Assembly (NCBI RefSeq): GCF_000620125.1 | Contig: NZ_JHVL01000002.1 | Span: forward strand, 1 to 64,000 | From: Clostridiisalibacter paucivorans DSM 22131 | Lineage (GTDB): Bacteria; Bacillota; Clostridia; Tissierellales; Clostridiisalibacteraceae | Reading direction: 5' to 3' | DNA length: 64,000 nucleotides | Shown: positions 43,640-57,474 of the stretch, in pieces | How positions within the stretch are numbered: the first letter of the stretch is position 1 | Layout: each line of letters begins with the position of its first letter | The notes under the pieces: generated by a model | The model's input: only the letters and a program-made list of their open reading frames with translations | Database searches by the model: none | What the model was told of the DNA's origin: nothing | Program-made: the position numbers and the translations under genes

Positions 43640-44692
43640 TCATCTTCCCCCCTGTATATTTTTTGTTGTTTCTACTATCAACATCTCCACTCCTAATTTA
43701 GAGTCCATACCCCCTTTTTTTATAGCCCTATCAATATCTAAAGCTCTATTTAAAGCATATTCTAGCTGTCCTATATTAAGTCTTTCACTTTGATTAATTA
43801 GTTTTTTAGCTATATATGATGGAACCCCTATTTTTTTTGCTATATTAGTCTGGATATATCCTTTATTTTTTAGCAATTTAGACATAAGCAAAAGTCTAAA
43901 TTGTCTTATTATCATGTACAATATCAATTGGATTGGTTCATTCTCCAGCAACATTTCATTTAAAATCTTAAGTGACTTATTTAGATTTGATGCGCCTATG
44001 CCATCTACCAACTCAAATATGTTATTCTCTATAGATTTAGTTAATACCATATCTATATCCATTTTCTCCACTATATTTTTTTCACCTATAAAATTTATTA
44101 GCTTTATAATTTCATTCTCTACATCATATAAGGTCTTTTGACTATTTCTATCTAAATATCCAGTACACTCAACAATATACTTTATATCTTTCAGCTTTGC
44201 AGTCTTGTCATAATTAGATAACAACTTGGTTATCCACTTTTCTAAATCATATTTATTTATCCTATTTATTTCAATTATTGCATCTTCTTTTTTAAATTTC
44301 TTAACTATCTTCTTTTTTCCATCTATCTTTCCATCCTTTATTAAAAAAAATAGACATGTGGCCATACTAGGAGACTCAATATATCTTAATAATTCTTTTT
44401 CATCATATTTTTTATCAGTCTTTCCACCTTTGAAATAATTAAAATCTTCAACTACAACAATCTTTTTTTTATCCATAAAAGGTAAAGTTTCACATGCATT
44501 TATTATATCCATAACCGAAGTATCATCGTCATCTAAAAGTATATAATTTAATGTTTCAAATTCTTCCCTAACAAATTTTTCTTTTAATTTAGTTACTATC
44601 CAATCCTTGAGATAATTTTCTTCCCCAAAACATAGATATATAGGTTTTAATCGGTTTTTTTTGATTTCTTCTATAAAGTTTTTATAATCCAT
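43640..44692 (-). CDS. holA: DNA polymerase III delta subunit
   Basis: HolA (YqeN) opens the sliding clamp in the clamp loader. The 350-residue protein has the weak AAA+ fold of delta: an N-terminal PIYLCFGEENYLKDW, VVVEDFNYF and C-terminal ANELVDGIGASNLNKSLKIL-type helical collar, with no Walker A. ATG 44692 follows GAGGTG; the longer GTG start lies inside the ribosome site. It overlaps the end of comEC, as in many Firmicutes. Confidence 0.93.
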   Translation of the reverse strand: MDYKNFIEEIKKNRLKPIYLCFGEENYLKDWIVTKLKEKFVREEFETLNYILLDDDDTSVMDIINACETLPFMDKKKIVVVEDFNYFKGGKTDKKYDEKELLRYIESPSMATCLFFLIKDGKIDGKKKIVKKFKKEDAIIEINRINKYDLEKWITKLLSNYDKTAKLKDIKYIVECTGYLDRNSQKTLYDVENEIIKLINFIGEKNIVEKMDIDMVLTKSIENNIFELVDGIGASNLNKSLKILNEMLLENEPIQLILYMIIRQFRLLLMSKLLKNKGYIQTNIAKKIGVPSYIAKKLINQSERLNIGQLEYALNRALDIDRAIKKGGMDSKLGVEMLIVETTKNIQGGR

Positions 44693-47094
44693 TTTTTGCA
44701 CCTCAATAATATTATTATATATATAATTAAAATCAAAATATCTAGTCCATATAGCCTTATTACATTATATAATTTTAACTTTTCTTTTTTATAAGTTTCT
44801 ATATTAAACCCTTTTTCATCCAAAATTATAGTAATTAAACCTTCATTATCTGTCCGATATATTTTTATATCTTCAGCTCTAAACCTATTCAACACACTAT
44901 TATTTGGATGTCCAAAGTTATTTTTCCCTACCGATATAATAGCTGTATGTGGATTCACAGCTTTTATAAATTTTTTTGTAGAAGATGTACTACTTCCATG
45001 GTGAGGCACTTTTAATATATTAGATTTTATATCTTTTTTATCTATTAATTCATATTCCATATCTTTTTCTATATCTCCTGTAAATAAAATCCTTTTTTTA
45101 TATGCATTAATCATTAGGACTAAGGATTTATTATTATCTGTATAATCCCCATTGGCTATTTTAGGACTTGGTCCTAATACATCAATATAAAATGATTTAT
45201 CTAAAAATAACCGTTCTCCATCTTTCAAAGTAGTAATGCATATATTATTATTATTTGCCGTTTCTAATATATCTTTGTATAATTTTTTATCTGGATTTCT
45301 ATATCCTATAAATAAATTATCTACATTTAGACTGTTCATGACAGTAACAGCAGCTTTACAATGATCAGCATCAAAATGAGTAATAAATATACCATCCAGA
45401 TTCTTTATTCCATTTTTCAACATTAAAGGTGCTGTTATATTTTTACCTATATCAAAATTTCCAAAATCACTGCCTCCACTATCTATCATTAAAGTAGTAT
45501 TACCTTTTCTTATTATTGCGCAATCACCTTGTCCTACATCTACAAAACTAATATATATCTTATCATCTAATATTGTAGTAAAACTATAACACAATATAAT
45601 CACAATAAAAATAATATATAAAAACCTTTTTATATTAAAATTTATATTAATCATATCAACTACTCTAAAAACAGTCAAAATAGAAAAATAATATATAAAT
45701 ATTTCTAAATGATTTGGAGATACTACAATCATATCTCCAATATATAATTTATCTAATATATACATAAGAATATCCAATATATATAATATACCATTAAGTA
45801 TAAATCCCAATATTAAAGTTAATTTAAAGCTCAATATAGAAATAAATATCATAATAAATCCTATAGAAACTCCAAAGGATATTAAAGGTATAATTACTAT
45901 ATTTGTTATTAATGCAAAATATGAAATAGTATTAAAATGATAGGCCACTATGGGAATTATCCCCAGTTGAACAGAAATAATTGTGCTGATAATACTCAAT
46001 ATATAACTTTGTCTCTTCAATAATTTAAGAAGTTTATTATTAAATACCAATATAGATAGTGTAGCTATAAATGATAATTGAAAACCAATATGGAACAACC
46101 AAAAGGGGTTTATTAATAGTAACAGGACTCCTACAAAAAATAATCCATTTATGGCATCATACCTTCTATATGTTGTAAATGAACCCATAAAAACAGAAAA
46201 CATTATCAGTGCCCTTAAAACAGAAGGAGGAAACCCAATCATAAATCCATAAAACCACAAAATACCCAAAGTAAATACTGTAGATACATTGATATTTATC
46301 ATTAATAATCTAAAAATACCCATAAACATTGCCGCTATTATACCTATATGCAATCCAGAAACAGCTAGTATATGTGCAATACCAAAGTCTCTAAATTTTT
46401 CAATATAAGACTCATCTAAATATCTATCATCTCCAAGTATTATAGATTTCATAATATTACTGTATTTAGGCGACAACATTTCATCAAATATATTGATTAT
46501 ATGATTTTTAAATTTATCAATTACAGCTAGAAGCCTATTATTGCCAGAAGATACAATCTTTACATTATAGTCTCTAGCATTTATATAAGTATGTATATCT
46601 TTTGTCAATAAATATAATTGATTATTAAATAACTTAGGATTTGAATTTTGTCTAGGCCTATTAACCATACCCTTTACACTTACAACTTCTCCAATATAAA
46701 ATTTTTTCTTCCCATATAACTTAAGCAGTATTTTTTCATCTATTTTATATATTTTTTTATTAACTTTAATAGTATCTGTATCTATAATATATTTGGAATA
46801 TTCTTTATCTATATAGTTTTTCTCCTTGACTACTCCTTCTATATCTACTATTTCATTGGCATAATCTTCGATTTTGCTTTTATTTGTATGGAAACTTACT
46901 AAAAAACCCCCTAATAAAAACATTGCAATATATACATACAATGCACGTTTAAATCCCAAATAGACATCTATAAAGATCAATACAAAAATAAAAATTGTAA
47001 AAAAGGCCATAATTATCATATCTAATTTAAAATTATCGAATACATATATTCCCAATATTAATGATATTAACAAATTTATAAAGGGCCTACGCAT
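44671..47094 (-). CDS. comEC: ComEC/Rec2-family DNA uptake channel
   Basis: ComEC forms the membrane channel for single-stranded DNA in transformation and contains a nuclease-like domain. The 807-residue protein has N-terminal membrane helices and an OB-like DUF4131 part (about 50-190), the Competence membrane region (HILAVSGLHIGIIAA, PPSVLRALIM) and a C-terminal metallo-beta-lactamase domain (VDVGQGDCAIIRKGNTTLMID, ITHFDADHC, KVPHHGSSTS). No other competence genes are present, so use for DNA uptake is not proven. Confidence 0.95.
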   Translation of the reverse strand: MRRPFINLLISLILGIYVFDNFKLDMIIMAFFTIFIFVLIFIDVYLGFKRALYVYIAMFLLGGFLVSFHTNKSKIEDYANEIVDIEGVVKEKNYIDKEYSKYIIDTDTIKVNKKIYKIDEKILLKLYGKKKFYIGEVVSVKGMVNRPRQNSNPKLFNNQLYLLTKDIHTYINARDYNVKIVSSGNNRLLAVIDKFKNHIINIFDEMLSPKYSNIMKSIILGDDRYLDESYIEKFRDFGIAHILAVSGLHIGIIAAMFMGIFRLLMININVSTVFTLGILWFYGFMIGFPPSVLRALIMFSVFMGSFTTYRRYDAINGLFFVGVLLLLINPFWLFHIGFQLSFIATLSILVFNNKLLKLLKRQSYILSIISTIISVQLGIIPIVAYHFNTISYFALITNIVIIPLISFGVSIGFIMIFISILSFKLTLILGFILNGILYILDILMYILDKLYIGDMIVVSPNHLEIFIYYFSILTVFRVVDMININFNIKRFLYIIFIVIILCYSFTTILDDKIYISFVDVGQGDCAIIRKGNTTLMIDSGGSDFGNFDIGKNITAPLMLKNGIKNLDGIFITHFDADHCKAAVTVMNSLNVDNLFIGYRNPDKKLYKDILETANNNNICITTLKDGERLFLDKSFYIDVLGPSPKIANGDYTDNNKSLVLMINAYKKRILFTGDIEKDMEYELIDKKDIKSNILKVPHHGSSTSSTKKFIKAVNPHTAIISVGKNNFGHPNNSVLNRFRAEDIKIYRTDNEGLITIILDEKGFNIETYKKEKLKLYNVIRLYGLDILILIIYIIILLRCKKWIIKTL

Positions 47095-47359
47095 ATCATT
47101 CTCCCTAAAATTATATAATCAATTTTTAGTAACTCAACTTAATTATAACATTATATTTAAATATAAATGAAAAAAACTTATAATTTAAGATTATTTAACA
47201 TGTATAATTATGTTTTTATTAAAGTTATTATTAAAAAATTTTCTAATAATTTAGACTACGTATATGTAAAAGAGTATATCTCAATGGACTTATGTCATTA
47301 AATTCTATTTTATTTTATGTATATTTATTCATTGATTACATAATAATTCATTTTGTGTG

Positions 47360-47388
47360 TTGACTTTTTACATTATATCCTTTAAAAT
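47360..47388 (+). promoter_or_regulatory. Sigma-A promoter before arcA
   Basis: TTGACT (47360-47365), a 17-base spacer and TAAAAT (47383-47388) lie about 65 bases before the arcA ATG. A second TTGACA at 47,394 has a poorer -10. Confidence 0.7.
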
Positions 47389-47418
47389 CAACATTGACAG
47401 AGTTTTCTTGTTATTCTT

Positions 47419-47438
47419 TTATGAATATTTCATGAATA
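47419..47438. promoter_or_regulatory. Overlapping palindromes before arcA, possible ArgR site
   Basis: ATGAATATTTCAT and the following TTCATGAA form overlapping palindromes between promoter and ribosome site. ATGAAT-type half-sites resemble ARG boxes bound by ArgR/AhrC, but the match to the 18-bp consensus is only partial. Confidence 0.35.
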
Positions 47439-47450
47439 AGGAGGCCCAAT

Positions 47451-48674
47451 ATGAAAAATAATTATATGTTAAATGTAACATCTGAAATTAGTAAGTTAAA
47501 AACTGTTCTTCTTCATAGACCAGGAAAAGAATTGGAAAATTTAGTACCAGATTTATTAGAAAAATTATTATTTGATGATATACCTTATCTAAAAATAGCA
47601 CAAGAAGAGCATGACAGCTTCGCTCAAATACTTAGAAACAACGATATAGAAGTATTATATCTTCGAGACTTAGCAGCCGAATCATTAACTACAAATGAAT
47701 TAAGAGAACAAATGATAGAAGATTTTTTAGAAGAATCCCATGTCTTTGGACAAGATAACAAAGAGATAATCAGACAATATCTCAGCGATTTTAATAATTA
47801 TCAACTTATAGATAAAATGATGGCAGGAGTCAGAAAAGAAGATCTTAAAAACTACAAAAGTAAATTCCTAGTAGATATGGTAGCTAGAGAATATCCTTTT
47901 ATCTTAGATCCCATGCCAAATTTATATTTTACAAGAGACCCCTTTGCTACTATAGGGAATGGAATAACTCTCAATAATATGAAGACAGGTATAAGAAATA
48001 GAGAAACTATTTTCGCAAAATATATATTTGAAAATCACCCAAGATTTAAAGACAAAAAAATACCTATATGGTTCAATAGAAATGAAAAAACTTCTTTAGA
48101 AGGCGGAGATGAATTAGTATTAAATGATAAAGTCATTGCAATGGGCATTTCAGCTAGAACTGATGCAGCTTCTGTAGAAAAATTCGCTAAAAATATATTT
48201 AATGACGGTCAAACATTCGAAACAATTTTAGCTTTTGATATACCGAAAAAAAGAGCATTTATGCATTTAGATACCGTGTTCACTATGGTTGATTATAATA
48301 AATTCACTATACATCCTGAAATAGAAGGTCCTCTTACTGTATTTTCAATCACTAAAGGTACAAATAATGATTTAAATATAGTTAGAGAAGAAGATACTTT
48401 ATCAAATATACTAAAAAAATATTTAGAACTAGACAAAATAACACTAATACCTTGTGCTGGAGGAAATAAAATAGATGCACCAAGAGAACAGTGGAACGAT
48501 GGATCTAATACCTTAGCTATAGCACCAGGTGAAGTTGTAGTATACGAAAGAAACTATGTTACAAATGAACTTTTGAAAGATCATGGAATAAAAACCCATT
48601 TGATGCCAAGCTCTGAGCTTTCCAGAGGCAGAGGTGGTCCAAGATGTATGAGTATGCCACTTATTAGAGAGTAG
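47451..48674 (+). CDS. arcA: Arginine deiminase
   Basis: ArcA hydrolyses arginine to citrulline and ammonia, the first step of the ATP-yielding deiminase pathway. The 407-residue protein has all expected motifs: [29 protein letters not shown] (catalytic His), [18 protein letters not shown] and the nucleophile Cys399 in [10 protein letters not shown]. The ATG follows AAGGAGG. Ornithine carbamoyltransferase and carbamate kinase genes (arcB, arcC) are absent on either side, which is unusual; they must lie elsewhere or the enzyme serves another purpose. Its stop codon is inside repeat copy 3. Confidence 0.97.
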
Positions 48675-48752
48675 CTAGTAGTTCGTAGTCGATGGCAGAG
48701 AACCTACGGTTCTCTACATTGTGCTACCAATTACTACATGCTACAAACTCTA
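48669..48752. repeat. TAGTAGT-rich imperfect palindromic repeat, copy 3
   Basis: GTAGCTAGTAGTTCGTAGTC on the left is loosely mirrored by ACTACATGCTACAAACTC on the right, with an inner stem AGAGAACC/GGTTCTCT. It begins at the arcA stop codon (TAG within GAGTAGCTAG) and ends before the next leftward gene. This is the most diverged copy. The inner stem could terminate transcription from both sides. Confidence 0.65.
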
Positions 48753-48756
48753 TTAA

Positions 48757-49494
48757 TTATAGACAATATGTTTGCATATCTTTACTTAGTTCCAATATGG
48801 AATCATAATTATCTGTGGCTTCTTTCATTATATCTTCGAGCTTATACTCAGGCCAAAAATGTGTCAATATAAGCCTTTTTACTCCTGCCTTAGCTGCTAT
48901 CATACCTGCTTCACTAGGGGTTAGATGGGGTATATCATCAGTTTTATCTCTACTCAATACTCCTGCCTCACACAAAAACAAATCAACATTTTTCACAAAA
49001 TCTATTAACTCAGTAAAATATGATGTATCTGAAGAATATACAAAAATCTTTTCTCCATTATCTACTTTAATACTATAGGTTTCAACGGGATGTTTAGTTC
49101 TCTTAAATGTTACTTTCAATTCATTTATATTTAACACTTTCTCCTCATCAATATCTCTTATATCGAATGCCCCATTATAATTCATATTATTTACTATATA
49201 TTGGTCATCTTTAGGAGTATATACAGGTATAGACCCTTGAAATTTCCCCTTAGATTTATTTATACCAATGGCATATTTAAAAACAAACATATCCCCAATA
49301 TGGTCCATATGCAAATGACTAAGTATGATAGCATCTATTTTCTTTATATCAATAAACTTAAACAATCTGGACAATACACCATTTCCACAATCAATTAATA
49401 TCTTTGTATCATTCTCACTTTCAAGCAAATACCCAGAGCAAGCTTTATCTGTTCCAGGATAAGGACCATTATTTCCAAGTACTGTTATTTTCAT
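48757..49494 (-). CDS. Metallo-beta-lactamase-fold hydrolase (YhfI-like)
   Basis: The 245-residue protein has the MBL signature HLHMDHIGD (His60, His62, Asp64, His65), further ligands in YSSDTSYF (Asp) and a C-terminal LTHFWPEY His. The overall form is that of the RNase Z-like/YhfI group of small hydrolases, with no RNase Z exosite insert seen. The substrate is unknown. It is convergent with arcA and stands alone on the minus strand. Confidence 0.85.
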   Translation of the reverse strand: MKITVLGNNGPYPGTDKACSGYLLESENDTKILIDCGNGVLSRLFKFIDIKKIDAIILSHLHMDHIGDMFVFKYAIGINKSKGKFQGSIPVYTPKDDQYIVNNMNYNGAFDIRDIDEEKVLNINELKVTFKRTKHPVETYSIKVDNGEKIFVYSSDTSYFTELIDFVKNVDLFLCEAGVLSRDKTDDIPHLTPSEAGMIAAKAGVKRLILTHFWPEYKLEDIMKEATDNYDSILELSKDMQTYCL

Positions 49495-49542
49495 CTCTAC
49501 ACCTCCACGAGAAGTTCCATGTTTGTTTCTTAGTATAAAACA

Positions 49543-49572
49543 AAGAGCCTAAACTGTAAAGTCTAGACTCTT
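49543..49572 (-). terminator. Terminator after the ECF S-component gene
   Basis: On the minus strand AAGAGTCTAGACT pairs with AGTTTAGGCTCTT over 13 bp including G-U pairs, with a four-base loop and a following TGTTTTAT. It is only eight bases from the stop codon. Confidence 0.75.
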
Positions 49573-49580
49573 CTAATTAG

Positions 49581-50390
49581 TTATCCTTTTTTAATTTTCA
49601 ATATATATTTATTAATAGTTTCTACTTTATTTAGTGTAGCAACAGCAAAAGATGCTATCACCATTCCTCCCACAAACTGTAATATATTTGCTGGAACACT
49701 AAAAATAGGAACAATCATATTGCCTTTAAGTATTCCACCACTTATATAATAACCAACAACCATCCAAAGCCCTGCCACAGTCATGCCCATAAGACCAGTT
49801 ATATTAAATAATTTTTTCCCTTTTTTCTTCAATATTATATGAAGAACTATGACTAATATAGGTATAAATGCAATAGCTAGCATCAAAGACTTTTGTACAT
49901 TACCTATCAAGTTTATCAACTCATTAGTTCCATTCAATTCTAATTTGTTTATAAGAAAAGTCGTCATCTCCGAATTATTTATTCCATTAAGTATTTTAGA
50001 CAAAATATTTTTAATAGTTAACCCAAATGCTATCCATATAGTTATACTCGCAAATGTCACACCAGTATTTAAAGCTTTAGAATCCTTCTCTGTTAATTCT
50101 TTTGCCATGTATCCCACTATGGCTCCCATTATTCCCTTTATTATCAAAGTAGGAACAGCCCAATGGGAATATCCCAAATACAAATCAGCTAAAGAAGATC
50201 CTAATCCTCCCGTTATAGCTCCAAATCTCCATCCCAATAATATAGCTGAAATAAATACCATACTATCCCCTATATGAATATAACCTTCAGTAAAAGGTAC
50301 TGGCACATGGGGCATTATAGCAGTAGCAGCAAAAACCATTGCTGTCATAAGACCTCCAAATGTTATTTTTCTAATATTTAATTCTTCCAT
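49581..50390 (-). CDS. ECF transporter S component (vitamin-type substrate)
   Basis: S components bind a vitamin or its precursor and dock on the shared EcfAAT module, which is not in this window. The 269-residue protein has about six membrane helices, the helix-1 motif MTAMVFAATAIMPHVPVP, GYIHIGDSMVFISAILLGW and GGLGSSLADLYLGYSHWAVPTLIIKG, typical of the large ECF_trnsprt family. An insert of about 50 polar residues (ILSKILNGINNSEMTTFLIN) lies in the middle. The substrate cannot be told from sequence alone; pyridoxine, HMP and others use such proteins. A strong operator-like palindrome directly before the gene suggests vitamin-dependent control. Confidence 0.85.
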   Translation of the reverse strand: MEELNIRKITFGGLMTAMVFAATAIMPHVPVPFTEGYIHIGDSMVFISAILLGWRFGAITGGLGSSLADLYLGYSHWAVPTLIIKGIMGAIVGYMAKELTEKDSKALNTGVTFASITIWIAFGLTIKNILSKILNGINNSEMTTFLINKLELNGTNELINLIGNVQKSLMLAIAFIPILVIVLHIILKKKGKKLFNITGLMGMTVAGLWMVVGYYISGGILKGNMIVPIFSVPANILQFVGGMVIASFAVATLNKVETINKYILKIKKG

Positions 50391-50403
50391 TCTTTTCCCC
50401 TCC

Positions 50404-50442
50404 CTTTATAGATACAATTATATCATAATTGTATCTATAAAG
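50404..50442. promoter_or_regulatory. Operator-like 18-bp-arm palindrome before the ECF gene
   Basis: CTTTATAGATACAATTAT and its exact complement ATAATTGTATCTATAAAG are separated by three bases. On the minus strand the palindrome contains TATAAT (50417-50422), a possible -10 box, and abuts the ribosome site GGGAGGGG. A further half-site ATTGTATCTAT lies at 50,470, 42 bases away. This fits a dimeric repressor site covering the promoter; an RNA hairpin next to the ribosome site is the other reading. Confidence 0.65.
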
Positions 50443-50469
50443 AAAGTATTTTTTTTGATTTGTACCCTT

Positions 50470-50480
50470 ATTGTATCTAT
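50470..50480. promoter_or_regulatory. Second half-site ATTGTATCTAT
   Basis: This repeats the right arm of the main palindrome in direct orientation, 42 bases (about four helical turns) upstream of it with respect to the ECF gene. An additional regulator-binding site is likely. Confidence 0.45.
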
Positions 50481-50512
50481 TATTATTTTTGTTTATTGAT
50501 ATTTTGCAATAA

Positions 50513-50578
50513 AAATAGTAAAGTTTCCATTAATCATATTGTACAAATAAAATATAATTAACGGAAACTTTACTATTT
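50513..50578 (-). terminator. Long hairpin with 22-bp arms ending the miniprotein gene
   Basis: AAATAGTAAAGTTTCCATTAAT (50513-50534) mirrors 50557-50578 with one mismatch, with a 22-base loop. The minus strand continues ACTATTTTTATTGC, so it can act as a terminator. The stop codon of the miniprotein gene (50573-50575) lies in the first arm. The arms are much longer than in ordinary terminators here. Confidence 0.6.
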
Positions 50579-50713
50579 ATTTCTGTTCCTATTCATTTTA
50601 TTCATTGAATATACACTCAATAAAATACCTACTACAATATATAAAGACCCTCTAAATTTGTCGTTTCCAGTAGCTAGTGAAAAATTAGACATATGATTCA
50701 AGTAATTAAACAA
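50573..50713 (-). CDS. Small membrane protein (46 residues)
   Basis: This small frame begins with TTG 50713, eight bases after AAAGGA, or with ATG 50692 (39 residues). The protein has one hydrophobic helix (GSLYIVVGILLSVYSM) and a short basic tail (NKMNRNRNK), the form of a single-span membrane miniprotein. It follows the helical/TPR-like gene by 40 bases on the same strand and ends in the long hairpin. I do not recognise it. The ribosome site and clean stop support that it is real, but only moderately. Confidence 0.45.
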   Translation of the reverse strand: MFNYLNHMSNFSLATGNDKFRGSLYIVVGILLSVYSMNKMNRNRNK

Positions 50714-50753
50714 AGTCCCATTCCTTTCAATTTTTTATTTCCATATAAATCTT

Positions 50754-52160
50754 TCAATCTTCTAATATAGGAAACAATTTTAACATCTTTTTTTGATGTA
50801 AACCACAACTTCCCTCATAAATTTCAGAATAGAATTCCCTTGCCTTATTAATATCATTATAATAGTATTGATATATTGAACCTATCTCTTTATAAATTCT
50901 ATAGTCTTTAACTCCTATTCCAAGAACTTTTTTATATACTTTTAATGCCTCATCTACATGTTGGCATTTTATAAGGGATTTAGCTATCTCCCAATAATGT
51001 TCTTCTAATCTTATATGATTTTTTTCTTCAAAATATATTGATGCAATTAATTCGTATTGCTTTTTCTCAAAAAGAGTAGGTATATACTTGGGTTCCATCA
51101 AATATTCTTTTATAAATGTCTTTTTATATTTTGGTATTGACCTGTCTTTTATTTTTTTAGACATCCCTTCAACAAAAATGCCATAACTTTCAGTTAAATC
51201 ATATACTGTTTCTTCGAAGGCTTGGAATACATATATTATTTCTTGCATGTATGTCTTAAATAATTTATACTTGATTTCTTTTAAATAATTCAAAAATACT
51301 TTTTCAAATTCCTTTATAGTATACATTTTTATTATATTAGTATTTTTAATAATCTTGGATTTATTTAAATACATCTCTATAGAATAACTATATAATTCAA
51401 AACTTTTTATTGTAAACAAAGAAGAAGAGCTACTATATATTATTTTTCCCAATTCATTAAAACATAGATATGTATCCTTTACCCTCTCCCATATGCCTTC
51501 ATCTCCAAAATTGTAAAATATTTGAAAATGAACAAAAAGCTCCGACATTAAAAATAAAGCATATTTTTCAAATATCTCATAGTCTTCATTTTTTATTGTT
51601 TCTTTTAAAAAAGGTATTAAAGATTTAAAAAATTGAGCCTCATCACATGAATAATAATATGTTTTATTTTCTTCTAAATTAATCTTTGAATATCTTGTAT
51701 AATAAAGTTTATCTATAGGAATTATCTTTAAGACATTATATATTTGGTCATCTATATTGCCATATACATTTACACGAGATATTAGTTCATTGGCTATTAT
51801 GGGAATATCCAAAGCCTTTATATCTCCTTCTTTAATCCTTCTTTCAATATAGCTATCTATTTCTCTATTATATACAAATAATGCCTTTTCATATTCTCCA
51901 TATCTACAAAAAAGATCTTTTAAACGATTAGCTATCAGAAAATCCAACTCTATTTTATTTTTCTCATTGGATTCATTAAAAACTTCTATTCTCTTGAACA
52001 TAATATAATTTAAAATAGGAAGTATATTTCTTCTTTCATAAAATTTTTCAATATAACCTAAATATTCAATATTTAATTCATCATATTCTTTAGGATATAG
52101 CATATTTATTAAATCATATTGTGTCTTAGACTTAAATTCTCTTAAAAATGTATTTTCCAA
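50754..52160 (-). CDS. Unrecognised helical protein with C-terminal TPR-like repeats
   Basis: I do not recognise this 468-residue protein. It is helical throughout, rich in Tyr, Lys, Glu and Ile, without signal peptide or clear membrane segment. The C-terminal part (DEALKVYKKVLGIGVKDYRIYKEIGSIYQYYY and the next unit with KAREFYSEIY) fits two or three TPR units; the middle has repeated YxxF/YEIFEKY-type helices. I chose TTG 52160 with GAGGGG five bases upstream; ATG 52178 lacks a site. It lies with the miniprotein gene between ECF transporter and aminomutase genes. It may be a scaffold or a regulator, but no function can be given. Confidence 0.75.
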   Translation of the reverse strand: MENTFLREFKSKTQYDLINMLYPKEYDELNIEYLGYIEKFYERRNILPILNYIMFKRIEVFNESNEKNKIELDFLIANRLKDLFCRYGEYEKALFVYNREIDSYIERRIKEGDIKALDIPIIANELISRVNVYGNIDDQIYNVLKIIPIDKLYYTRYSKINLEENKTYYYSCDEAQFFKSLIPFLKETIKNEDYEIFEKYALFLMSELFVHFQIFYNFGDEGIWERVKDTYLCFNELGKIIYSSSSSLFTIKSFELYSYSIEMYLNKSKIIKNTNIIKMYTIKEFEKVFLNYLKEIKYKLFKTYMQEIIYVFQAFEETVYDLTESYGIFVEGMSKKIKDRSIPKYKKTFIKEYLMEPKYIPTLFEKKQYELIASIYFEEKNHIRLEEHYWEIAKSLIKCQHVDEALKVYKKVLGIGVKDYRIYKEIGSIYQYYYNDINKAREFYSEIYEGSCGLHQKKMLKLFPILED

Positions 52161-52232
52161 TCTTACCCCTCGTTTCATATATGTCACATTTCAAAACGCT
52201 AATATATTACCATAATTCAATCTTAACACTTT

Positions 52233-52283
52233 AATATCATATATAATAATATAATTTTGTAATATATTATTATATATGATATT
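52233..52283. repeat. Perfect inverted repeat with 21-bp arms
   Basis: AATATCATATATAATAATAT plus one base (52233-52253) is mirrored exactly at 52263-52283 around a nine-base loop. It is entirely A/T-rich with no T-tail on either side, and lies upstream of the TPR-like gene. It may be a cruciform-forming or regulator site, or a trace of a small mobile repeat. Confidence 0.6.
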
Positions 52284-52350
52284 AGAAAAACTATATAGCA
52301 ATTATGTTTTCTTTTTAAATTATAACATATATTTTCCACAAATACATAAA

Positions 52351-52376
52351 AGAATTAAGCTTAATAGCTTAATTCT
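52351..52376 (-). terminator. Terminator after the glutamate aminomutase gene
   Basis: AGAATTAAGC and GCTTAATTCT (10 bp, six-base loop) are followed on the minus strand by TTTTATG. It lies 55 bases after the stop codon. Confidence 0.65.
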
Positions 52377-52430
52377 AGATTTGTGATAAACATATAAGTT
52401 TATTAAAATGCATAAAATAAGCCTATCATC

Positions 52431-53705
52431 TCAATTTTTTCGATATATATCCCTTATATCCTTTGTTGGATGATTAGGATATTTTATAACTTTCCCTTCC
52501 CAAGTCCTTATAATTATATCCTCTTTTCCTCTAGAAAGTAAATATTGTGGTAGTATGGGCGTTTTTCCTTGACCTTTAGGTGCATTTACAATATAAGTAG
52601 GTATAGCCATTCCTGAAGTATACCCCCTAAGATATTCTATAATTTCAATACCGTCATCTATAGATGTATTGAAATGAGTCGTACCTATAACATGCTTTGC
52701 ATGGAATATATAATAAGGTCTTATTCGTATTTTAAGTAATTCATGATTTAATGACTTCATTATACATTTATCATTATTGATACCATTTAACAAAACAGCT
52801 TGATTACCCAATGGTACTCCTGCATTAGCTAATTTTTCAGCTGCCACTTTTGCCTCTTCAGTTATTTCCTTAGGATGATTAAAATGTACATTTATATAAA
52901 TAGGATGGTATTTTTTTATAATATTAACCAAATTATCTGTAATCCTTTGAGGCATAGTAACTAACGTTCTAGTTCCAATCCTTATATACTCTACATGTTC
53001 AATAGCCTTTAATTCCTTTAATATCCACTCAATTCTATCATCAGGTAAAGTTAATGGATCTCCACCAGTTATTAGCACATCTCTTATTTCTGAATTCTTT
53101 TTTATATAATCAATGGATTCCTTTATAGCCTTAGTAGTTTTATGCATATCTTTTTGGCCTATATTTCTTCTGCGTTGACAATGTCTACAATACATAGCAC
53201 ATTCATTTGTAACATTGATTATAAGCCTATCGGGATATCTTCTAGTTATACTACCAGCAGGATTTGTATACTCCTCTGCCATAGGATCTTTATCTCCTTC
53301 AGTTTCTATAATCTCTAAAGCTGTAGGTATAGACATAAGCCTTATGGGGTCAAAGGGATCTTTTTTATCTATGAGACTTGCATAATAGGGGGACACTGCC
53401 CACCTATATCTTCTTCCTACTTCTTCTATTTCTTTCTTTTCCTCTGGAGTTAAATCAATTATTTTTCCCAATGTCTCTACATCACTTATTCTATTAGACA
53501 ATTGCCATTTATAGTCATTCCAATCCTCTTCGGTTCCCTGTAAAATTGCTAAAATCTTTGCCTTAGATTTTTCATATTCAAGTGTTAAATCTAATCCTTT
53601 AGGAATTTTATCTTTAACTTCTAAATAATCAGATATTCTAGATTTTAGTTCCTCTGCTCTTTTTAATGAAATTTGTCTTTTACTATTTTTTCCAGCTTCT
53701 TTCAT
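52431..53705 (-). CDS. eam: Glutamate 2,3-aminomutase (radical SAM, PLP)
   Basis: The enzyme moves the amino group of L-glutamate to make beta-glutamate, a compatible solute in some anaerobes. The 424-residue protein has the lysine 2,3-aminomutase fold with Cys169, Cys173 and Cys176 (NECAMYCRHC), PLP lysine Lys381 in NAPKGQGK and RTRTLVTMP motifs. The two acidic residues that hold the lysine side chain in lysine aminomutase are replaced by Lys337 and Asn374, at exactly the same spacing to the PLP lysine (44 and 7), as described for glutamate aminomutase. ATG 53705 follows GAGGAGG by seven bases. It has its own promoter region and terminator. Confidence 0.9.
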   Translation of the reverse strand: MKEAGKNSKRQISLKRAEELKSRISDYLEVKDKIPKGLDLTLEYEKSKAKILAILQGTEEDWNDYKWQLSNRISDVETLGKIIDLTPEEKKEIEEVGRRYRWAVSPYYASLIDKKDPFDPIRLMSIPTALEIIETEGDKDPMAEEYTNPAGSITRRYPDRLIINVTNECAMYCRHCQRRRNIGQKDMHKTTKAIKESIDYIKKNSEIRDVLITGGDPLTLPDDRIEWILKELKAIEHVEYIRIGTRTLVTMPQRITDNLVNIIKKYHPIYINVHFNHPKEITEEAKVAAEKLANAGVPLGNQAVLLNGINNDKCIMKSLNHELLKIRIRPYYIFHAKHVIGTTHFNTSIDDGIEIIEYLRGYTSGMAIPTYIVNAPKGQGKTPILPQYLLSRGKEDIIIRTWEGKVIKYPNHPTKDIRDIYRKN

Positions 53706-53711
53706 CAGCAT

Positions 53712-54101
53712 TCCTCCTCATGGTATATTATATAATTTATGACTTATTCTGAATGTTCAGAATTGTCTTTGTTGTTTTTTTGAGCTTGAAAAATAACATA
53801 TTTAATATTTACAATATGTTTGAAAACAACCCTTATAATTTTGAATTTAAATCCATGGGTATGTTAGTAAAATATTTTTAAACACAAGATTTGATTATTA
53901 ATAATTTTGAAAAGAATTTAATAGATTGGTTATAACAAGCTATTATATTATAGCCCATATTGAGATAAATGTCAATAATTACACCTTTTGCAAAATATAA
54001 TTTTCAAAAGTATATCACTTCAAAATAATCCTTTTAAATGATAGAATAAAGTATAACTAATTAAAAATTAGACTTGTATGAGTCTACAAATGGAGGTATT
54101 T
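53712..54101. other. Divergent intergenic region, eam / lipoprotein
   Basis: About 390 bases hold the promoter of eam on the minus strand (TATAAT at 53,727-53,732) with a palindrome upstream, and a weak rightward promoter (TTCAAA...TAGAAT near 54,020-54,045) for the lipoprotein gene. The remainder is AT-rich with no gene seen. Confidence 0.5.
53746..53763. promoter_or_regulatory. Palindrome ATTCTGAATGTTCAGAAT at the eam promoter
   Basis: Eight-base arms around a TG centre form a perfect inverted repeat. On the minus strand its position overlaps the expected -35 region of the eam promoter (-10 TATAAT at 53,727-53,732), which fits a repressor site. Confidence 0.5.
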
Positions 54102-54587
54102 ATGGTTAAAAAAATTAGTTTTATTTTTCTTATAATATTATTAATATTCAATTTAGGTTGTACTGAGTCTCTAAAAGAACAATTACTTGACTATGTAAAT
54201 ATTGCTTTACCCCCTGCTATTACATTAGAAAATGAAGCATTGGAAAAATATAGTATAGCTTTTAAGGAATATAGTGATGACACCAATAAACTTTATTTAT
54301 CCTTAGAAAAAAATATAATCCCAAAATATGAAGAGTTTGTTGGAGCTTTAAATGAAATCGAAACTAAATCTCCTGAAATAACTAATATACATCAGCTCTA
54401 CATAAAAGGAGCAAATAAACAATTAGAAGCTCTAATAATACTCAAAAACGGATATAAGGAAAAAGATAATAAAAAAATACTCGCTGCTGATAAACTTTTA
54501 GAAGAATCTCGAAAATATATGAAGGAATTTAAAGATGCCATAGTAGAACTTGCCGAAGAATACAATATAGATTATAAAATACAATGA
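54102..54587 (+). CDS. Small lipoprotein, unknown function
   Basis: The 161-residue protein has a lipoprotein signal peptide (MVKKISFIFLIILLIF) with the lipobox NLGC and Cys at about residue 21. The mature part is helical and acidic, with SLEKNIIPKYEEFVGAL and ESRKYMKEFKDAIVELA, like four-helix sensor or cell-surface domains; no family is recognised. ATG 54102 follows GGAGG; a more upstream ATG has no site. It is followed after nine bases by the AlaX gene, so the two are co-transcribed. Confidence 0.75.
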   Translation: MVKKISFIFLIILLIFNLGCTESLKEQLLDYVNIALPPAITLENEALEKYSIAFKEYSDDTNKLYLSLEKNIIPKYEEFVGALNEIETKSPEITNIHQLYIKGANKQLEALIILKNGYKEKDNKKILAADKLLEESRKYMKEFKDAIVELAEEYNIDYKIQ

Positions 54588-54596
54588 GGTGAACTT

Positions 54597-55817
54597 ATGA
54601 CCAACAAAGTCTATCTTGAAAATTCTTATTTAACAAAAATCAAAGCAATCGTAAAGGATAAAAAAATTATAGATAATACAATACATTTAATTACCAATAG
54701 AACTATATTTTATCCCCATATGTCAGGAGGACAACCTAAAGATGAAGGACTCATAAATAATGTCCAAGTTTTAAATGTATATAAAAAAGATGATAATATT
54801 ATTCATATTTTAAGTGAAGATATTTTTGATGAAGAAGTAAGTCTTACCATAGATTGGAATACTAGGTTTGACCACATGCAACAGCATACAGGTCAACATA
54901 TATTATCTGCTGCATTCAACAAACTGTTTGATGCTAATACCATAGGATTTCATCTAGGTAAAGATTATGTCTATATAGATATTGATATATCAGATATAAC
55001 AAAGGAACAAATCCAAAAAGTTGAGACTTTTGCCAATCAAATTATATTTTCAAATTTTGATATCAAAACATATTATGTCAATAAAGAGCAACTGGCTAAT
55101 TTACCAATAAAAAAAGTTCCTAAAATCAATAATGAAAATATTCGCATTGTAGCAATAGATGATATAGATTATTCTCCTTGCGCTGGAACTCATAACAGTA
55201 CTACTGGAGAAGTTGGTTTGATTAAAATACGTAAATGGGAAAAATACAAAGGTAATATTAGGCTTGAGTTTGTATGTGGAAATAGAGCATTAACAGATTT
55301 CAGATGGAAAAATGATTATATTAATAGTCTCGCTAATTTTTTTTCCACAAAGGATGACAATATATTGAATACTGCAACAAAAATGTATGAGGAAAATAAA
55401 TTATTAAAAAAACAAATAAAGAAACTTAATAATGATTTATTAAGTTTCCAATGTAACGAACTTTTAAGTAAAGGTAAAAATTATGATGGCATAAATCTAA
55501 TATCTAATATCTATCAAGATACACAGTTCTCAAAAATTAGAGATATTGCATCATATATAACTAATAGCCCTTCCACACTGGTTATTTTAGGCGTGACATC
55601 TAAAAATAAATGTCAAATTATATTAGCAAAATCTCAAAATCTCCCAAATATTAATATAAAAAAAGTTTTCAATCAGATTATACCTCTGTTAAAAGGTTCT
55701 GGGGGAGGTAATCCATATATGGTACAAGGTGGAGGTCAAGATTGTCAATATTTATCAAACTGTATTGATAATGGACTCACTTTAATTAAGGAACAAATAG
55801 AAAAAAGCACTGGGTAA
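54597..55817 (+). CDS. Alanyl-tRNA editing protein, AlaX-L type with DHHA1 domain
   Basis: AlaX proteins hydrolyse mischarged Ser-tRNA(Ala) in trans. The 406-residue protein has the editing zinc site His97, His101 (HTGQH) and Cys195, His199 (CAGTHNS), then a helical stretch and a C-terminal DHHA1 domain with the GSGGGNPYMVQGGGQD motif. This long form is like the C-terminal half of AlaRS without its catalytic and tRNA domain. It follows the lipoprotein gene by nine bases with overlap of function unclear. Confidence 0.92.
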   Translation: MTNKVYLENSYLTKIKAIVKDKKIIDNTIHLITNRTIFYPHMSGGQPKDEGLINNVQVLNVYKKDDNIIHILSEDIFDEEVSLTIDWNTRFDHMQQHTGQHILSAAFNKLFDANTIGFHLGKDYVYIDIDISDITKEQIQKVETFANQIIFSNFDIKTYYVNKEQLANLPIKKVPKINNENIRIVAIDDIDYSPCAGTHNSTTGEVGLIKIRKWEKYKGNIRLEFVCGNRALTDFRWKNDYINSLANFFSTKDDNILNTATKMYEENKLLKKQIKKLNNDLLSFQCNELLSKGKNYDGINLISNIYQDTQFSKIRDIASYITNSPSTLVILGVTSKNKCQIILAKSQNLPNINIKKVFNQIIPLLKGSGGGNPYMVQGGGQDCQYLSNCIDNGLTLIKEQIEKSTG

Positions 55818-55842
55818 TCTAAAGTTGAATTACCCAGTGCTT
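55805..55842. terminator. Bidirectional terminator between the AlaX and amidohydrolase genes
   Basis: Fourteen-base arms (AAGCACTGGGTAAT and complement) with a 10-base loop. The AlaX stop codon is inside the left arm and the amidohydrolase stop codon lies four bases beyond the right arm. T-rich sequence follows on both strands. Confidence 0.9.
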
Positions 55843-55845
55843 TCT

Positions 55846-57474
55846 CTATTTACTGTATACTATATTACCATCTAACATTGTCATATCTATTTCCACATTT
55901 TTAATTTCTTCGTGGGGTACTTCCATAATATCATCTGATAATATAACCAAATCAGCAAGCATGCCTGCTTTTATCATTCCTTTTTCATTTTCTTCATAGG
56001 TATCATATGCTGGATTTCTTGTAAATATCTTTAGCCCTTGATATACATCTATTCTCTGTCGTGGATACCATCCTCCTTCAGGATATCCATCTGGTTCTTG
56101 CCTTGTAACTGCTATATATAAATTCATTATAGGGTTGAACGTCTCTACAGGAGCATCCGATCCTCCCGAAAGTCTTATTCCTTTATCCCACATTGTTTTC
56201 CATGCATAGCTTGTTTTTATCCTTTCTGGACCTACTCTATTCTCTCCTATGGCTATGTCAGATAACATAAATATAGGTTGAATATCAGCAATTACATCTA
56301 ATTCTTTGAATTTTTCAAAAATTTCACTGCTACCTATTTGACAATGCACTATTCTAAATCTAGGGTCTTTTTTAGGATGTTTTTCAGATATCATTTTATA
56401 TGCATCTAATACTTGATCCATAGTCCTATCTCCTATGGCATGTACCGCTAATTGCAAACCATTTTTATGAGCAGTTACTAATAGATACCTTATTTCTTCA
56501 TCGCTATATATAAGTAAACCACTGGTACTAGGATCATCACTATATGGCTCGTGCATAGCTGCTGTCCTAGAACCTAAGGAACCATCTGCCAGCAACTTAA
56601 GGGGGCCAAATCTAACCCATTTATCTCCATCTCCTGTTTTATGTCCCAACATTAAAAAGTCATTTAGTTTCTCCCTAGTCTGTAGAAGCATCTGCATATT
56701 AATCCTTGCATTTAACCTTCCCTCTGCTTTTAACTGCTCATATGCATCTATTGCCTGTTGATAAGACTTTGCATAAGTAAAATCATCGGTTTGTATCGAA
56801 GTTAAACCTACTTTATTGGCATCCTTTATACTCTGTTCTATTAAGTTCTTCATATCTTCTATATTTTCAGTTACAGGTATCAATCTATTCACCATGTATA
56901 TAGCATTTTCTCTCAATATACCTGTAGGTTCACCAGTTTCTGGATCTCTATCGATCTTTCCTCCTTCAGGATCTTTAGTATCCTTTGTTATGCCTGCTAA
57001 TTCTAATGCCTTTGAATTAACTACACATATATGATAACATGCCCTTACCATATATACTGGTCTATCACTAATTACTTCATCAATATCTTCTTTCCTTGGC
57101 AGTCTTTTCTCTTTAAATTTGTCATGATTCCAGCCATGCCCTTGCACCCATTGATCGAATATCTTTGTTTTTTCATCTTTTAAAAATTTTTTTAAATCAT
57201 TTTTTAAATCCTCTATAGATCTAGCATTTCTATGGTCTGCCTTAAATTTTGTTAAACCATAGGCCACAAGATGCATATGACTATCATTAAACCCTGGTAT
57301 AAGCGTCCTACCCTTCAAGTCAATTTTTTCAGTATCCTTTGAAATAAAAGTTAATGCTACTTCATGCTCCCCTACAAATGCTATCTTGTCATCCTTTACT
57401 ACAACTGATTCAGCAATATGGTTTTCATCATCCATGGTCAAAATTTTTCCATTGTAAAACAAATAACTACTCAT
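55846..57474 (-). CDS. Amidohydrolase of the YtcJ-type family
   Basis: The 542-residue protein is an amidohydrolase-3 family member with the metal motif GFNDSHMHL (His66, His68), a conserved IQTDDF/HAIGDRTMDQVL region giving further ligands and SGGSDAPVETFNP near the end. YtcJ-like enzymes hydrolyse amides or carbamates with unknown natural substrates. The ATG follows AAAGGGGGG. It is convergent with the AlaX gene and appears to have its own promoter, about 57 bases after the UPF0173 gene. Confidence 0.88.
   Translation of the reverse strand: MSSYLFYNGKILTMDDENHIAESVVVKDDKIAFVGEHEVALTFISKDTEKIDLKGRTLIPGFNDSHMHLVAYGLTKFKADHRNARSIEDLKNDLKKFLKDEKTKIFDQWVQGHGWNHDKFKEKRLPRKEDIDEVISDRPVYMVRACYHICVVNSKALELAGITKDTKDPEGGKIDRDPETGEPTGILRENAIYMVNRLIPVTENIEDMKNLIEQSIKDANKVGLTSIQTDDFTYAKSYQQAIDAYEQLKAEGRLNARINMQMLLQTREKLNDFLMLGHKTGDGDKWVRFGPLKLLADGSLGSRTAAMHEPYSDDPSTSGLLIYSDEEIRYLLVTAHKNGLQLAVHAIGDRTMDQVLDAYKMISEKHPKKDPRFRIVHCQIGSSEIFEKFKELDVIADIQPIFMLSDIAIGENRVGPERIKTSYAWKTMWDKGIRLSGGSDAPVETFNPIMNLYIAVTRQEPDGYPEGGWYPRQRIDVYQGLKIFTRNPAYDTYEENEKGMIKAGMLADLVILSDDIMEVPHEEIKNVEIDMTMLDGNIVYSK

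What the first reader, a model, noticed from the sequence alone, without database searches (positions are those of the whole stretch)
50573..52160. Unrecognised two-gene unit: helical TPR-like protein plus 46-residue membrane miniprotein
A 468-residue protein of no family known to me is followed after 40 bases by a single-span miniprotein gene with its own ribosome site, and the unit is bracketed by two long hairpins (21- and 22-bp arms). A cytoplasmic repeat protein with a tiny membrane partner could be a signalling, regulatory or toxin-like pair. It is the best candidate here for something undescribed.
Basis: partly seen in the sequence, partly recalled or inferred. Interest (0 to 1): 0.58.

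Follow-up and report, generated by a model that had tools for sequence, protein, structure and literature searches.

The report
Orphan repeat gene beside conserved miniprotein
Two bacterial genes taken for a new partnership are a one-off helical repeat gene and a tiny membrane protein that belongs to a conserved family without a database entry, usually found beside a DNA-uptake gene in related bacteria.

Summary
A 468-codon TTG-started gene (50754-52160, minus strand) is followed after 40 bases by a 46-codon gene with its own ribosome site. Long AT-rich hairpins lie on either side.

The "pair" does not hold up. The large gene is a real coding gene but an orphan: no relative in 249 same-order genomes, 391 class or 398 phylum genomes, or in the phage, plasmid and viral sets. 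Only its C-terminal ~85 residues look TPR-like.

The miniprotein is the conserved part. A profile built without the window's sequence finds it in the window at E 6e-9; the next best hit is 2.2. The same family, 26-46 residues, occurs once per genome in 30 of 249 order genomes at E<=1e-10, including Tissierella praeacuta. It has an invariant Gly-x6-Gly helix, a tail close to WSLNRMNRxK, third-codon-position change, and no Pfam or NCBIfam entry.

Of these 30, 21 have it directly upstream of comEC and 22 divergent from an alanyl-tRNA-editing (AlaX) gene. The window keeps this neighbourhood in expanded form. None of the relatives examined carries the large gene, so the unit is composite: a lineage-specific gene inserted upstream of an ancestral miniprotein gene. 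Quorum-sensing and toxin readings are disfavoured.

The parts
50754..52160 (-). orphan gene, 468 aa, all-alpha, TPR-like only at the C-terminus (residues about 382-468), possibly also 68-101
   Evidence: ORF and RBS; codon score +55 bits; no family; no relatives; single-sequence AlphaFold model, mean pLDDT 57, C-terminal match to TPR chains Z about 10, rmsd 1.5-3 over 68-86 residues
50573..50713 (-). 46-aa single-span miniprotein (TTG start), local member of a conserved order-wide family
   Evidence: profile without the window row: E 6.2e-9, next best 2.2; column-shuffled profiles best 0.02 in 30; family in order genomes; third-position bias
50513..50578 (-). AT-rich terminator-like hairpin, 31-nt arms, overlapping the miniprotein stop codon
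   Evidence: z -10.0
52232..52284 (.). 22-bp perfect AT-only inverted repeat upstream of the large gene (role unknown; possible operator/promoter region)
   Evidence: z -7.6; not repeated elsewhere in the genome
52351..52376 (-). terminator of the upstream glutamate 2,3-aminomutase-like gene, separating it from the unit
44671..47094 (-). comEC (DNA-uptake channel), 807 aa; usual direct downstream neighbour of the miniprotein gene in relatives
   Evidence: Pfam Competence 3e-56; found with a relative's ComEC N-terminus
54597..55817 (+). AlaX-type alanyl-tRNA editing gene; usual divergent upstream neighbour of the miniprotein gene in relatives
   Evidence: Pfam tRNA_SAD 4.3e-10, DHHA1 1.1e-5; contexts
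47451..48674 (+). arcA (arginine deiminase), direct downstream neighbour of the miniprotein gene in three relatives
   Evidence: Pfam ADI 2.9e-131
52431..53711 (-). glutamate 2,3-aminomutase (KamA family), upstream neighbour used for the synteny comparison
   Evidence: NCBIfam TIGR04368 702 bits, cut-off 650

Best explanation
The unit is composite, not a conserved pair. (a) The 468-aa gene is a lineage-restricted orphan that sits in a variable slot downstream of kamA. It makes a soluble alpha-helical protein whose C-terminus folds as TPR-type helix hairpins, so it probably works as a binding scaffold. (b) The 46-aa gene is the local copy of an old single-copy family of bitopic miniproteins of the Tissierellales, at home in the AlaX / mini / arcA-comEC neighbourhood. 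Shown: the ORFs, hairpins, homology of the mini, single copy, synteny and protein-level selection. Inferred: one transcript (40-base gap, one terminator after the mini); N-outside/C-inside topology (C-end more basic than N-end in 30 of 30); the invariant Gly-x6-Gly face packing the helix against a membrane partner; and the conserved W/Y-S-L/F-N-R-x-N-R-x-K tail sitting at the cytoplasmic membrane face. My committed guess for function is a small accessory or stabilising subunit of a membrane protein, with ComEC the likeliest partner (about 25%) because in most carriers the two genes lie within a few bases of each other. I see no evidence that the two window proteins act together (about 12% that they do).
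For: The large gene has no relative: own genome only itself, 249 order genomes, 391 class genomes, 398 phylum genomes, genome contigs, viral contigs, phages. One partial 35% match over 19% of it in a plasmid protein falls on the TPR-like end. In 19 kamA-like loci of relatives the slot holds other genes. The miniprotein family: single-sequence search gave 58% identity in G009 and further hits. The profile A1 matched 44 of 249 order genomes at E<=0.01, 30 of them at E<=1e-10, one match each. A profile without the window row hits the window at 6.2e-9 against 2.2 for the runner-up. Pooled differences by codon position are 338/88/621. Contexts: comEC directly downstream in 21 of 30 and AlaX divergent in 22 of 30; in 14 loci with record titles, 12 of 14 and 13 of 14, with comEC 0-14 bases away. 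The window carries comEC and AlaX either side. In G037 (and, diverged, G007 and G023) the mini sits in the same kamA-to-ECF slot.
Against: No function is shown for either protein. In the window, comEC is about 3.5 kb from the mini, with an opposite-strand gene between them, and most class genomes have no detectable mini (2 of 391 have it, both in the order), so a general need of ComEC for it is unlikely. Three of 30 carriers have arcA and four have other genes downstream. Failure to find relatives of the large gene may reflect fast evolution: no other genome of the window's family was among those searched, so close relatives could not be examined.
Confidence: 0.6

Rival explanations
1. A quorum-sensing receptor and propeptide pair of the RRNPP type (Rap-Phr, AimR-AimP like): the TPR protein binds a processed, re-imported piece of the miniprotein.
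For: Receptor size 250-500 aa, direct adjacency, small second gene with a good ribosome site, TPR-like end; the Rap regulator of plasmid pLS20 is among the structural matches (6t46_E Z 10.0, rmsd 2.8 over 86 residues). Criteria read in passages of PMC10075063.
Against: Best TPR profile E 0.045, not <1e-5. The miniprotein is conserved, including its C-terminal tail, in genomes where no relative of the large gene was found. The charge order is reversed for a Sec signal (C-end more basic in 30 of 30), and only about 9 residues follow the hydrophobic core in the window's copy.
Confidence: 0.04
2. Toxin-like pair: the miniprotein is a small hydrophobic membrane toxin, the large protein (or an RNA) its antidote.
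For: Size and single span resemble small hydrophobic toxins (general knowledge, not tested).
Against: One match per genome in a stable core-gene neighbourhood, protein-level selection, no match in PADLOC, phages or plasmids, and carriers lacking the large gene.
Confidence: 0.04
3. In this lineage the orphan TPR protein has been recruited to the conserved miniprotein, which anchors it at the cytoplasmic membrane face through its basic tail; the two are now a true functional unit.
For: Adjacency, 40-base gap, probable shared transcript and terminator; a TPR-type scaffold and a short basic cytoplasmic tail are a plausible contact.
Against: No second genome with the arrangement; the mini does without the large protein elsewhere.
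Confidence: 0.12
4. The large gene is a very diverged version of the gene that occupies the slot in relatives (the 197-aa family or DUF4177).
For: Same position downstream of kamA.
Against: Profile comparison with the 197-aa family: probability 0.9% over 16 columns; length 468 against 197 and 61.
Confidence: 0.03

Closest known systems
RRNPP quorum-sensing pairs (Rap-Phr, NprR, PlcR-PapR, AimR-AimP, Qsr)
   Same: A 250-500 aa helical TPR-type protein next to a small gene; the C-terminal fold resembles TPR chains including Rap of pLS20.
   Different: No TPR profile above threshold; the miniprotein has no N-terminal basic export signal by eye, is conserved independently of the receptor and looks like a resident membrane protein.
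Tetratricopeptide-repeat proteins (Pfam TPR clan)
   Same: Residues about 382-468 superpose on TPR structures (Z about 10, rmsd 1.5-3 over 68-86 residues).
   Different: No curated TPR model passes its cut-off; most of the protein has no confident fold.
Small bitopic membrane subunits encoded beside their partner (for example CcoQ or KdpF, recalled, not tested)
   Same: A 26-46 aa single span with a basic C-end, encoded next to a large membrane protein in most carriers.
   Different: No sequence relation was tested; the partner is not proven; no Pfam or NCBIfam entry fits.
ComEC neighbourhood genes of Bacillota
   Same: The miniprotein gene directly precedes comEC in 21 of 30 carriers.
   Different: It does not resemble comEA or comEB (recalled, not tested); paper searches gave no description (listings only).

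Membership tests
RRNPP quorum-sensing system (criteria of PMC10075063, passages read) | receptor 250-500 aa | tested here: met
   468 aa
RRNPP quorum-sensing system | receptor matches peptide-binding TPR profiles (E < 1e-5, coverage > 65%) | tested here: not met
   best Pfam TPR E 0.045; NCBIfam best 8e-4 to a 1065-column model far below its cut-off. Only the Pfam and NCBIfam part of the published TPR profile set was available.
RRNPP quorum-sensing system | small propeptide gene (10-100 aa) directly adjacent | tested here: met
   46 aa, 40 bases away
RRNPP quorum-sensing system | propeptide has a Sec export signal (SignalP) | not testable with these tools
   SignalP not on hand; charge order argues against it (C-end more basic in 30 of 30)
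TPR family (Pfam) | score above a curated TPR cut-off | tested here: not met
   TPR_12 14.4 bits against 30.1; TPR_2 14.1 against 27
TPR fold | helix-turn-helix repeats superposing on known TPR structures | tested here: inconclusive
   C-terminal 382-468 only, from a single-sequence model with mean pLDDT 57
AlaX/comEC-linked miniprotein family of Tissierellales (defined here) | match to a family profile that excludes the query | tested here: met
   E 6.2e-9, runner-up 2.2; shuffled-column control best 0.02 of 30
AlaX/comEC-linked miniprotein family of Tissierellales (defined here) | invariant Gly-x6-Gly, single span, basic C-end | tested here: met
   Gly22 and Gly29 in alignment A3; charge and hydrophobic core
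AlaX/comEC-linked miniprotein family of Tissierellales (defined here) | located between AlaX (divergent) and arcA/comEC | tested here: met
   AlaX 54597 +, mini 50573 -, arcA 47451 +, comEC 44671 - in the window, with extra genes between
known anti-phage defence proteins (PADLOC-DB) | match to a PADLOC model | tested here: not met
   none at E<=1

The most novel reading that the evidence does not exclude
The miniprotein is an unrecognised small subunit that stabilises or gates the ComEC DNA-uptake channel in Tissierellales, made from a gene that directly precedes comEC in most carriers. In the window's lineage a newly arisen TPR protein has attached itself to the miniprotein's cytoplasmic tail, giving DNA uptake (or another membrane machine) a lineage-specific soluble regulator.
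Probability: 0.1. Interest if true: 0.65.

Novelty: new member of a known kind. Interest (0 to 1): 0.38.

Why it matters
Genes of 26-46 codons are often missed by annotation. This one is conserved across several families of an order, sits in a stable neighbourhood next to comEC, and its members have no entry in Pfam or NCBIfam. If it is a ComEC partner it would be a missing piece of DNA uptake in anaerobic Bacillota, where transformation is poorly understood; that is directly testable by deletion in a laboratory strain. The case also warns that adjacency in one genome (orphan gene plus miniprotein) can suggest a pair that relatives dissolve.

Tried and rejected
Weak matches of the large protein were rejected as chance. 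In order genomes there were five besides itself, at E 0.005-0.03; L002 and L003 are methionine aminopeptidase by eye, L004-L006 were not identified. In class genomes there were 13 besides itself, at E 3e-4 to 0.01; I read the ORFs of L007 and L012, which look like VTC-domain proteins (name recalled, no family call), L015 looks like methionine aminopeptidase, and the remaining ones were only compared by tblastn.

Relation of the large gene to the 197-aa slot family was rejected. That 197-aa family is not detected in the window's own genome. Rfam gave nothing in 47000-56000. PDB sequence search gave seven weak matches at E>=0.0045, six of them designed or consensus-repeat chains by name and one a dynein chain (0.44). 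Foldseek and VIA-align gave many TPR-like chains, but the model is of low confidence and Z about 10 is common for helical repeats; absence of a named family there is not evidence.

Weaker profile hits of the miniprotein (14 of 44 genomes, E 1.9e-8 to 0.0085) were not examined for context. In one search, hits beyond the dozen used in A1 were mostly frames inside longer ORFs or weak and were not used. Five paper searches bearing on the miniprotein or the pair and one on orphan genes were seen as listings only; three of them returned no paper. From PMC10075063 I saw passages only. I did not name the window's species. That it is in the order of Tissierella praeacuta is inferred: G021 matches the T. 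praeacuta record by coordinates and has kinship 'same order'; lineage.

Full report
The observation. The two frames, their spacing and the hairpins are as described. The large frame is 468 codons from a TTG with GAGGGG upstream; the small one is 46 codons from a TTG with AAAGGA 14 bases upstream. The hairpin at 50513-50578 starts in the miniprotein's stop codon and folds at z -10.0; the one at 52232-52284 folds at z -7.6. The kamA-like gene upstream ends in its own terminator, so large + mini probably share one transcript that ends at the first hairpin. Neither hairpin is a dispersed repeat. The large frame is coding by length (chance 8e-21) and by codon use (+55 bits).

The large protein. No model of Pfam, NCBIfam, PHROGs or PADLOC fits above a cut-off; the best TPR match is E 0.045. 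It occurs once in its own genome. No relative appears in 249 order genomes, 391 class genomes or 398 phylum genomes (these samples overlap), nor in scans of genome contigs, viral contigs and phages. A plasmid DUF2726 protein matches 19% of it at E 8e-3 over the TPR-like end. A single-sequence AlphaFold model is all-alpha, mean pLDDT 57, best at residues 180-200 and 400-460. Only residues about 382-468 superpose tightly on TPR chains (Z about 10, rmsd 1.5-3 over 68-86 residues). So 'helical, TPR-like' is fair for the C-terminus and unproven for the rest.

The slot. I compared 19 loci of relatives around the orthologous or closest glutamate 2,3-aminomutase gene (up to six ORFs on each side printed). 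Where genes are preserved downstream of it there are a 197-aa family (alignment A2 of 10 loci), DUF4177, an amidase and others; no printed ORF matched the large gene. The 197-aa family is not related to the large protein. The slot is variable and the large gene is peculiar to this lineage; no genome of the same family other than the window's own was among those searched.

The miniprotein. A search of 60 relatives with the 46 residues alone found small open frames in other genomes, the best 58% identical over 31 residues with a 43-codon frame. A 12-row profile then matched 44 of 249 order genomes at E<=0.01, 30 of them at E<=1e-10 with one match each (the 30 include the window's own genome). 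The family is 26-46 residues long, with two invariant glycines seven apart in the span and a tail close to WSLNRMNRxK. To test homology without circularity, a profile from 19 rows without the window's sequence was run on all six frames of the window: the miniprotein scored E 6.2e-9 and the next frame 2.2; 30 column-shuffled profiles gave at best 0.02. Differences between pairs of members pool to 338, 88 and 621 at codon positions 1, 2 and 3 (57 equal-length pairs with at most 12 non-synonymous codons, not independent of each other). The tail is more basic than the head in 30 of 30. Twelve members scanned singly gave no Pfam or NCBIfam family (best E 0.02 and 0.015). A class sample gave 2 of 391 genomes, both of the same order, so the family looks confined to the order.

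Neighbours. Of the 30 strong members, the gene directly downstream was comEC-like in 21, arcA in 3, contig end in 2 and other in 4 (the window's own among these); the gene directly upstream was a divergent AlaX in 22 (comEC and AlaX assigned by motif and length). In 14 loci with record titles, which overlap the 30, comEC followed at 0-14 bases in 12 and AlaX preceded in 13; these include Tissierella praeacuta DSM 18095, T. pigra, T. simiarum and [Clostridium] ultunense. ComEC of T. praeacuta and of the window were confirmed by Pfam. In the window the order is AlaX (54597 +), kamA, large, mini (50573 -), ECF transporter, metallo-hydrolase, arcA (47451 +), comEC (44671 -): the same neighbourhood, with AlaX divergent from the mini and comEC on the mini's strand, but with extra genes between and arcA turned round. 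In G037 the mini sits between DUF4177 and an amidase inside the kamA-ECF interval, and in G007 and G023 a diverged copy sits in the same slot (E 0.0012 and 0.0035).

Reading. The pair is a neighbourhood accident or a young association: an orphan gene inserted upstream of an old miniprotein gene. The order-wide distribution contradicts a propeptide or toxin role tied to the large protein. The RRNPP criteria I could test fail on the TPR profile. What the miniprotein does is not shown. Tight linkage to comEC in most carriers makes a ComEC accessory subunit the leading guess at about 25%, but carriers without direct linkage, including the window, show that it cannot be simply a piece of a comEC operon.

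Limits.

Noticed in passing
50404-50442: An 18-bp perfect palindrome (ATAGATACAATTAT...ATAATTGTATCTAT) overlies the promoter region just upstream of the ECF riboflavin-type transporter gene; it looks like an operator (fold z -9.2).
   Followed up: partly
L058:9758-10351 and nine other loci (alignment A2): A conserved 193-221 aa family without a Pfam match in the one member scanned lies directly downstream of the glutamate 2,3-aminomutase gene in relatives and is not detected in the window's genome.
   Followed up: partly
48757-49494: Metallo-beta-lactamase-fold protein resembling cyclic-nucleotide-degrading phosphodiesterases (NF041851, 160 bits, below its cut-off 400), in the same run as the transporter gene.
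   Followed up: no
54078-54584: A 169-aa probable lipoprotein without a Pfam family, conserved next to AlaX in relatives (37-52% identity).
   Followed up: no
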